Source: Nitrosopumilus cobalaminigenes (GTDB lineage: Archaea; Thermoproteota; Nitrososphaeria; Nitrososphaerales; Nitrosopumilaceae). Taken from it: DNA of 64,000 nt. The notes beneath the pieces were generated by a model. The model was not told where the DNA came from. It was given only the letters and a program-made list of their open reading frames with translations, and did not search any database. Below are positions 52,617 through 55,087 of this stretch, piece after piece (the first letter of the stretch is position 1; the number at the start of each line of letters is the position of its first letter). A program made the translations under genes and the position numbers. The DNA lies in NCBI RefSeq assembly GCF_013407145.1, contig NZ_CP026993.1:890590-954589 (forward strand), given 5' to 3'.

Positions 52617-53021
52617 ATGAAAATGCCGAACTCATTAATGGCAGCTAAACGAAAAGCCGCTCCAAAGAGAAAAGCAGCTCCAAAGAGAAAAGCAGCAGCA
52701 AAACGCAAAGCAGCTCCAAAGAGAAAAGCAGCTCCAAAGAGAAAGGCAGCTAAAAGAAAAACCGCAGCTAAAAAAGCAGCTCCAAAGAGAAAAGCAGCAG
52801 CAAAACGCAAAGCAGCTCCAAAGAGAAAGGCAGCAAAAAGAAAAACTGCAGCTAAAAAAGCAGCTCCAAAGAGAAAAGCAGCTCCAAAGAGAAAGGCAGC
52901 AACTAAACGCAAAGCCGCTCCAAAGAGAAAGGCAGCTCCAAAGAGAAAGGCAGCTCCAAAGAGAAAGGCAGCAACTAAACGCAAAGCCGCTCCAAAGAGA
53001 AAGGCAGCAAAAAGACGATAA
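52617..53021 (+). CDS. Lys/Ala-rich repetitive DNA-binding-type protein (134 aa)
   Basis: After MKMPNSLMAA the protein is made almost only of units such as KRKAAP, KRKAAA and KRKAAK, about 20 copies. This resembles histone H1 tails and bacterial Hc1-like proteins, which neutralise DNA phosphates. It is probably chromatin-associated. No folded domain. A start at MAAKRK (52638) is possible. Encoded by short, nearly identical DNA units, so repeat number may vary between strains. Confidence 0.75.
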   Translation: MKMPNSLMAAKRKAAPKRKAAPKRKAAAKRKAAPKRKAAPKRKAAKRKTAAKKAAPKRKAAAKRKAAPKRKAAKRKTAAKKAAPKRKAAPKRKAATKRKAAPKRKAAPKRKAAPKRKAATKRKAAPKRKAAKRR

Positions 53022-53165: not shown

Positions 53166-53309
53166 ATGTCTGAAGATGACAAAATTGAAAAAATGTTACA
53201 AATGTTAAAAGAAGAAAAGAAAAAACTTTTGGATGAAGTTGATGAAACTATAATGAAAAAGAAATCTTTGTCAGATCCAAATTCAGAAAATGAACTTTTG
53301 AGAAAATAA
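53166..53309 (+). CDS. Small coiled-coil protein (47 aa)
   Basis: MSEDDKIEKMLQMLKEEKKK followed by LLDEVDETIMKKKSLSDPNS and ENELLRK. A single amphipathic helix with leucine/methionine spacing suited to a dimer. It sits between the Lys/Ala-rich and collagen-like genes, convergent with the latter. Not recognised. Confidence 0.5.
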   Translation: MSEDDKIEKMLQMLKEEKKKLLDEVDETIMKKKSLSDPNSENELLRK

Positions 53310-53327: not shown

Positions 53328-54983
53328 TCAGTAAAGATAGCTCATTAATTTAATTTGTTCTTCAGTAGTGATAATGTCTTTGTTAGTTAAAATTTCTAAC
53401 AAATCTTTGAAGATTGCTTTTTGTTCAGAAGACATTCCACCTGATGGACCTTTTTCTCCGGGAGGACCTGGCGGACCTCTTGGACCTGCAGGACCTACTG
53501 GACCTTGTCCTCCTACTGGACCTTGTTCGCCTATAGAACCTATTGGACCTGTTGGACCTCGTTCACCTTGTGGTCCTTGAATTCCTTGTGGACCTTGCGG
53601 ACCTTTTTCTCCAGAAGGACCAGTGGTTCCACGTTCACCTTGAGAACCTTGTGGACCTTGCGGACCTTTTTCTCCGGGAGCACCTATTGGACCTGTTTGT
53701 CCCTTTTCTCCAATTGGACCTACAGAACCTTTTTCTCCTTTTTCACCTTGTGGACCTGGAACACCAGTTAATCCTTTAGAACCAGCAGGACCTTGCGGAC
53801 CTTGCGGACCTTTTTCTCCAATTGGACCTTCAGTACCTTTGTTTCCTTTTTCTCCAATTGGACCAGGTGGACCTATCGGACCTTTGTCACCAGCTGGTCC
53901 GTTTGGACCAGTTAATCCTTTATCACCATGTGGACCAGGTGGACCTATCGGACCTTTGTCACCAGCTGGTCCGTTTGGACCTTTGTCACCAATTGGACCA
54001 GGACCACCTTGAATTCCTTTTTCTCCTTGAACCCCAGATAATCCGGTTGGACCTTTTTCTCCAGGAGGTCCAGACGGACCAGTTAATCCTTTATCGCCAG
54101 AAACACCTTGTGGACCTTTGTCACCTTTTTCTCCAGGGACACCTCTTAACCCAGCTCCACCTTTATCACCAACAGGACCTGTTGGACCTTTTTCTCCTTT
54201 GTCACCAAGAGGACCTTTTAATCCAGATAATCCTTTATCACCAATGGGGCCAGTAGGACCTTTTTCTCCTTTGTCACCAGGAGGACCAGTAATTCCTTTA
54301 TCGCCTTTATCGCCTTTATCGCCTGTAATTCCTTTATCACCAGTTAATCCTCTATCTCCAGAAATTCCTTTATCACCTTGAGGACCTTTGTCACCAGTAG
54401 CTCCTTTGTCACCAGCTGGTCCCTTTGGACCTTCAGGGCCTTTAATTCCGACAGGACCTTGTTGACCAGGAGGACCTATCGGACCTTTGTCACCAGCTGG
54501 TCCGGCTGGACCAGTAGGACCTTTGTCACCAGGAGCTCCGGCTGGACCAGGAGAGCTAGCAACAGATGTTTTTTGAGAACGTTTAGGTTTTGGAACATCT
54601 TTTGTTTGAGAAACAGATTCAGTTTTTGTTTCAGTTTTAACTTCAGATTGTGATGCAGTTCTTGCTAATGGAACATCAAACACAGTATGTAATGATGAAA
54701 AGAGATCAGTTACAACAATCCAAACTTTGTCAAGATTTGCAATAGTTGCAGGAAGAGGATTTGCAGGAGAACCTATGGTCTCTGAAAACATGCCATCTTT
54801 AACTCTAAGATGGAAATTACCTCTCCATAAAGAAGAAAATTGTTTTGTTCTAATATCATCATCAGTGGGTTTACTGTCAGTAATTGCAATTTGAGCTTCA
54901 TATACACCAGATTGTTTGAAAGGTGCCTGTCCTTGAATCTCTAATCGTGGCTGAGATGACACAACCGTTTGTGTATATTTCAA
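53328..54983 (-). CDS. Collagen-like protein with about 120 Gly-X-Y triplets
   Basis: 551 residues in three parts: an N-terminal beta-like domain (about 1-110, [20 protein letters not shown]); a polar linker (about 111-144); a collagen stretch (about 146-515) of Gly-X-Y repeats rich in Pro, Asp, Glu and Lys ([20 protein letters not shown] style, with no long interruption); and a C-terminal helical cap ([20 protein letters not shown]). The cap or N-domain could set trimer register. No signal peptide or membrane anchor is seen, so its location is unclear. Confidence 0.85.
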
Positions 54984-55087
54984 GTATTTCTGTATTTAGA
55001 TCGCTTGAACCTAATTCAATTCAGGTACGAACAGCAGCAGGCTCGATTAAGGTTGGTATTTATCTAGATAAAACACCATAATGAGCT

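What the first reader, a model, noticed from the sequence alone, without database searches (positions are those of the whole stretch)
53328..54983. Collagen-like protein in an archaeon
About 120 uninterrupted Gly-X-Y triplets with high content of Pro and charged residues, an N-terminal beta-like domain and a C-terminal helical cap. Collagen-like proteins are uncommon in archaea. No signal peptide is seen, so its place is unclear: it could be secreted by an unusual route, be a tail- or spore-like fibre, or be intracellular. No phage genes surround it.
Basis: seen in the sequence. Interest (0 to 1): 0.7.

Follow-up and report, generated by a model that had tools for sequence, protein, structure and literature searches.

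The report
Core collagen-like protein of ammonia-oxidizing archaea
A family of very abundant ammonia-oxidizing archaea carries, in nearly every genome and at the same chromosomal spot, one gene for a collagen-like protein with no export signal; strong selection shows that it matters to the cell, yet I found no paper describing it.

Summary
The minus-strand gene (53328-54983; real start very probably GTG 54962) encodes 124 uninterrupted Gly-X-Y triplets between a ~100-aa N-terminal beta-sandwich and a 34-aa helical cap. It is a family-wide core gene: the N-domain occurs in 167 of 200 genomes and 22 of 22 genera of the window's family (Nitrosopumilaceae), once per genome in all but two, mostly at one conserved syntenic site. 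It was not found in other families of the class, in sampled genomes of the phylum, phage records or viral contigs. Complete orthologs keep N-domain + GXY (84-163 triplets, mode 124) + cap. dN/dS is 0.02-0.19; no Gly codon was replaced in five comparisons with 28-44% synonymous divergence. In most orthologs an in-frame stop leaves no room for a signal peptide, while other collagen-like proteins of related archaea have signal-like N-termini. Best reading: a homotrimer nucleated at the RGPPGPPG motif and cap, a ~106-nm rod with three beta-sandwich heads, probably intracellular, a rigid spacer or scaffold. Trimerisation, place and partner are inferred, not shown. The LPXTG-adhesin label is not met; phage origin has no support. 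New variant of a known kind.

The parts
   Evidence: GTG or ATG aligned at this position in relatives; TTG 54983 lies within the conserved promoter-like block
54657..54959 (-). N-terminal beta-sandwich domain, about 100 aa
   Evidence: alignments A1/A3; AlphaFold2 model, pLDDT 91.8
54549..54656 (-). variable Ser/Thr/Lys/Pro-rich linker, no conserved sequence
   Evidence: alignment
53433..54548 (-). 124 uninterrupted Gly-X-Y triplets, collagen region; D/E at X, K/R at Y
53457..53480 (-). RGPPGPPG motif just before the cap, nearly invariant: presumed triple-helix nucleation site
   Evidence: alignment A4 of 45 orthologs (GPPGxPG invariant, R in 90% or more)
53331..53432 (-). 34-aa two-helix C-terminal cap ([34 protein letters not shown]), the most conserved part
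54982..54997 (-). conserved AAATACAGAAATACTT block about 24 nt before the GTG: presumed TATA-type promoter of a leaderless transcript
   Evidence: like blocks recur in the listed relatives

Best explanation
The gene encodes a homotrimeric collagen-like rod. The C-terminal helical cap and the nearly invariant RGPPGPPG next to it bring three chains into register and nucleate the triple helix, which zips toward the N-terminus. The Gly-X-Y part, stabilised by proline at X and by acid (X) and base (Y) residues in place of hydroxyproline, would be about 106 nm long (372 residues x 0.286 nm). A flexible linker joins it to three beta-sandwich heads that bind a partner. With no signal peptide or membrane segment, the trimer is most likely intracellular and acts as a rigid spacer or scaffold tying a head ligand to a cap ligand, possibly beneath the envelope. 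Shown: architecture, conservation, selection, no export signal. Predicted: folds of both ends. Inferred: trimerisation, nucleation, place, scaffold role.
For: Three-part architecture in complete orthologs. Restricted to one family and nearly universal there: 167/200 genomes and 22/22 genera; 134 of 146 family genomes and none of 104 genomes of other families in the class draw; phylum draw 43 hits, all in the family. Of the 12 family genomes without a hit, in 11 the TPR neighbour is missing, cut or within about 260 bases of a contig end. Synteny argS-HAD-DRG-collagen-TPR-rhodanese-sir-thi4 recurs in most of 20 loci from 18 genera. dN/dS 0.02-0.19, no Gly replaced at 124/124 positions in five comparisons. 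The cap is more conserved than the N-domain. In-frame stop at most 25 codons before the conserved G.APF motif in 67 of 77 orthologs; maximum 19-residue hydropathy 0.8-1.2 in six tested. The other collagen-like ORFs of the order that I sampled have signal-like N-termini. No PF13640 prolyl-hydroxylase-type gene in the genome. Confident models of both ends.
Against: No direct evidence that it trimerises, of where it sits or of any partner. The N-domain has no significant structural match; the best, SgrA 5fce, reaches only E 0.07 and Z 7.1, and SgrA is an extracellular adhesin. Helical moments of the cap are not significant. Collagen-like proteins of known function in bacteria are mostly at the surface (general knowledge). 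KGE/KGD axial pairs are fewer than shuffled triplets give (6 against 11.9).
Confidence: 0.45

Rival explanations
1. A surface or extracellular fibre: the trimer leaves the cell by a route that needs no Sec/Tat signal, or by lysis or vesicles, and sits on or beyond the S-layer with the beta-sandwich heads or the cap as ligand-binding adhesin parts.
For: Most known bacterial collagen-like proteins are surface proteins (general knowledge). The N-domain's nearest solved fold is the ligand-binding region of the E. faecium adhesin SgrA, weakly. An expression study reports an 'LPXTG-anchored collagen-like adhesin' in transcriptome and proteome of Ca. Nitrosotenuis chungbukensis MY2 (PMC13037477), though whether that is this protein or one of the secreted ones is unknown.
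Against: No room for a signal peptide in most orthologs, no membrane segment or LPXTG; collagen-like ORFs of related archaea that look secreted carry signal-like N-termini.
Confidence: 0.3
2. The protein stays largely disordered: a Gly/Pro-rich polyampholyte acting as a crowding or stress polymer, with no triple helix.
For: Linker is low-complexity; no hydroxylase found; highly expressed proteins of marine Euryarchaeota, one group annotated as collagen-like, were described as disordered (PMC5069720).
Against: Absolute Gly periodicity held by selection at all 124 positions, strict X/Y charge polarity, conserved GPPGPP before a helical cap: a disordered polymer would not need these.
Confidence: 0.12
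3. A phage-derived tail fibre or domesticated viral gene.
For: PHROGs tail-fibre families match, but only through Gly-X-Y.
Against: N-domain absent from phage records and viral contigs; the N-domain part has no PHROGs match; housekeeping neighbours in a recurring order across the family.
Confidence: 0.04
4. An LPXTG-anchored collagen-like adhesin of the streptococcal SclA/SclB type, as automatic annotation might name it.
For: NCBIfam NF038329 matches at 219 bits through the Gly-X-Y part.
Against: Below that model's cut-off of 325; no signal peptide, no LPXTG, no hydrophobic anchor.
Confidence: 0.02

Closest known systems
Bacterial collagen-like proteins with Pfam PF01391 (Scl1/Scl2 of streptococci, Lcl of Legionella, Bucl of Burkholderia)
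   Same: long uninterrupted Gly-X-Y region rich in Pro and charged residues, flanked by non-collagenous domains
   Different: those have export signals and mostly surface anchors (general knowledge); this one has neither, has its own N-domain and cap, and is an apparently vertically inherited core gene at one locus
Phage tail fibres with collagen repeats (PHROGs tail-fibre families)
   Same: signal-less proteins assembled inside the cell, collagen rods with end domains
   Different: N-domain not found in phages or viral contigs; no phage neighbours; housekeeping synteny
Bacillus exosporium collagen-like protein BclA (general knowledge, not tested)
   Same: collagen-like shaft with a globular head, made without a classical signal peptide
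   Different: spore protein released when the mother cell lyses; here no sporulation is known, and the end domains have no match found
Secreted-looking collagen-like ORFs of ammonia-oxidizing archaea (L178, L179, L180, L183)
   Same: Gly-X-Y runs in related archaea
   Different: signal-like N-termini, other domains; no evidence that they sit at one conserved locus

Membership tests
Collagen triple-helix repeat proteins (Pfam PF01391) | long uninterrupted Gly-X-Y run over the Pfam cut-off | tested here: met
   124 triplets; 192 bits against 27.2
Collagen triple-helix repeat proteins (Pfam PF01391) | forms a trimeric triple helix | not testable with these tools
   only inferred from register, charge polarity, GPPGPP + cap
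LPXTG-anchored collagen-like adhesin Scl2/SclB (NF038329) | score over the NCBIfam cut-off (325 bits) | tested here: not met
   218.9 bits
LPXTG-anchored collagen-like adhesin Scl2/SclB (NF038329) | signal peptide and C-terminal LPXTG anchor | tested here: not met
   in-frame stop close upstream in 67/77 orthologs, no LPXTG, C-terminus ends in LMSYLY
Phage collagen-like tail fibres | phage relatives of the non-collagen domain and a phage gene neighbourhood | tested here: not met
   no N-domain in phage records or viral contigs at the sensitivity used, housekeeping synteny
SgrA-type ligand-binding domain (PDB 5fce) | significant fold match of the N-domain | tested here: inconclusive
   Foldseek E 0.07, TM 0.55; VIA Z 7.1, rmsd 3.4 over 89 residues, within the range common without a clear relative

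The most novel reading that the evidence does not exclude
A family-wide cytoplasmic collagen: an intracellular triple-helix rod of about 100 nm, in cells a few hundred nm across, serving as a cytoskeletal or envelope-spacing element specific to Nitrosopumilaceae. One paper notes that cells of this family are rods while those of Nitrososphaeraceae are coccoid (PMC13037477); the N-domain was found in no other family of the class, but the coincidence is only suggestive.
Probability: 0.25. Interest if true: 0.85.

Novelty: new variant of a known kind. Interest (0 to 1): 0.62.

Why it matters
Nitrosopumilaceae are among the most abundant archaea on Earth (general knowledge). A near-universal, strongly selected collagen-like protein without an export signal would be an unexplored structural component of their cells, perhaps a case of collagen used inside a prokaryotic cell, and a lineage-defining gene that automatic annotation could mislabel as a streptococcal-type adhesin.

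Tried and rejected
Phage origin: no N-domain in viral contigs or phage records; PHROGs matches are to Gly-X-Y only. LPXTG adhesin: below cut-off, no anchor. Sequence search of the PDB with N-domain or cap profiles: nothing convincing. Pfam scan of N-domain and cap members: one CARD match for a single cap member, E 0.0003, not repeated in others and taken as chance. Fold searches: no significant hit in PDB or viral models. The + strand ORF 54956-55081 was considered as an overlapping gene: stops in relatives, so not coding; the conserved DNA there is promoter-like. KGE/KGD enrichment: none. Functional coupling with the TPR gene: that gene also occurs in other families where the N-domain was not found, and in some genomes it lies kilobases away or on another contig, so the pairing is probably positional. 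Literature: no paper found on this protein. The notebook entry speaks of '20 genera reps'; the 20 loci stand for 18 genera.

Full report
Observation. It contains 124 consecutive Gly-X-Y triplets (53433-54548) and scores 192 bits against Pfam Collagen (cut-off 27). X is proline in 44% of triplets; D/E occur almost only at X and K/R only at Y. Before the triplets come a ~100-aa domain and a variable linker; after them come 34 residues.

Start codon and expression signals. In 77 relatives the codon nine to eleven positions before the conserved G.APF motif is GTG or ATG in most, and a block like AAATACAGAAATACTT lies about 24 nt upstream. This fits a leaderless transcript starting at GTG 54962, so the TTG is very probably not the start. 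A + strand ORF across this region (54956-55081) has stops in relatives and is not coding.

Conservation. With the N-domain as query, 167 of 200 genomes of the window's family match, from all 22 genera drawn; 165 have one match and two have two (G184, G186). A profile of the N-domain in 250 genomes of the class matched 134, all among the 146 genomes of this family and none of 104 others. In that draw two genomes had two matches: G290, and G090, where the two look like pieces of one gene. A phylum draw gave 43 hits, all in the family. Named relatives include Nitrosopumilus, Nitrosarchaeum, Nitrosotalea devanaterra and N. bavarica. For the 12 family genomes without a hit, the TPR neighbour was sought: it is absent or matched only as a general TPR protein in four (G146, G164, G304, G148), cut off by a contig end in two (G189, G319) and within about 260 bases of a contig end on the relevant side in five (G056, G029, G106, G195, G108). 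I read these as assembly gaps. In G087 (genus g14) a methyltransferase gene stands beside the TPR gene; in two other g14 genomes (G069, G105) the N-domain and the TPR gene lie 4 and 9 kb apart, so its collagen-like gene may be on another contig, but a loss is not excluded.

Architecture. The 20 loci taken from relatives stand for 18 genera (L039, L040 and L052 share one genus, g9; L051 is of the window's own genus). Nineteen of the 20 show N-domain, 84-140 triplets and the cap; the exception, L036 of the reduced-genome genus g5, has a run of 22 triplets, with some unread bases, and a diverged cap. The complete genes among the 80 loci keep the cap. In the 61 complete genes counted, triplet numbers run from 84 to 163, with 124 the commonest (15 of 61); Nitrosotalea also has 123-124 although its X and Y residues are only 27-30% and 16-18% identical to the window's. 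In 45 orthologs RGPPGPPG stands just before the cap almost without change.

Synteny. In these loci the order argS - HAD phosphatase - DRG GTPase - collagen-like gene - TPR gene - rhodanese - sulfite reductase - thi4 recurs, with gaps where contigs end or genes are displaced: in L041 the rhodanese and reductase are turned round, in L033 the TPR gene is about 3.5 kb away, and in L034 it is on another contig.

Selection. In five comparisons with orthologs of equal triplet number, dN/dS is 0.09-0.19 for the N-domain, 0.11-0.16 for the triplets and 0.02-0.10 for the cap. None of 124 Gly codons has a replacement change although their synonymous differences are 28-44%.

Folds. AlphaFold2 gives the N-domain as a beta-sandwich (pLDDT 91.8) and the cap as two helices. 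Foldseek and VIA find no significant relative of the N-domain; SgrA of Enterococcus faecium is best at E 0.07, Z 7.1. Sequence searches of the PDB, Pfam, NCBIfam and PHROGs give nothing significant for the N-domain.

Place in the cell. In 67 of 77 orthologs an in-frame stop lies at most 25 codons before the conserved motif, and the likely starts leave about ten residues, too few for a signal peptide; six proteins tested have no membrane segment by hydropathy. Four other collagen-like ORFs that I looked at in the order (L178, L179, L180, L183) begin with signal-like hydrophobic N-termini (judged by eye, no predictor). This contrast favours an intracellular protein, but non-classical export is not excluded.

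Mechanism. I infer a trimer nucleated at the GPPGPP + cap end, about 106 nm long, with three heads. Hydroxyproline is not expected: no PF13640 match in the genome (other hydroxylase families were not sought). The role as a rigid spacer or scaffold is inference from shape and conservation only.

What is known. No paper on this protein was found in the library. One study reports an 'LPXTG-anchored collagen-like adhesin' highly expressed at low salinity and present in the proteome of Ca. Nitrosotenuis chungbukensis (PMC13037477); I could not check whether it is this ortholog. The NCBIfam adhesin model matches below its cut-off.

Verdict. Real, conserved, family-specific and under strong selection; new variant of a known kind; function open.

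Noticed in passing
window 52617-53021 (+): A 134-aa Lys/Ala/Pro/Arg repeat protein (KRKAAPKRKAA...), histone-H1-like in composition, next to the collagen-like gene; similar ORFs at the same place in L039, L040, L050 and L052.
   Followed up: partly
window 53166-53309 (+): A 47-aa charged ORF (P0001) between the K-rich gene and the collagen-like gene; only 5 tblastn matches among the fetched loci, so weakly conserved.
   Followed up: partly
window 54956-55081 (+): ORF overlapping the 5' end of the collagen-like gene; DNA partly conserved but with stops in relatives, so a promoter region and not a gene.
   Followed up: yes
L179 (minus strand): A 2518-aa ORF with 559 Gly-x-x triplets in one run and a signal-like N-terminus in a genus-g17 genome: a very large secreted-looking collagen-like protein.
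   Followed up: no
L178, L180, L183: Further collagen-like ORFs with signal-like N-termini in the family (L178, L180) and in family f3 of the order (L183).
   Followed up: no
L181: The genus g7 ortholog is split over reading frames (N-domain, triplets and cap in separate ORFs): frameshifts by mutation or sequencing error.
   Followed up: no
L135: An ortholog at 85% identity in a contig labelled Phycisphaerae bacterium; probably a misbinned archaeal contig.
   Followed up: no
L002 (G000:C1:733369-733590): A second protein of the own genome with a run of 18 G-x-x triplets of the GSIGSIGS type in a long ORF; low complexity, not a relative.
   Followed up: partly
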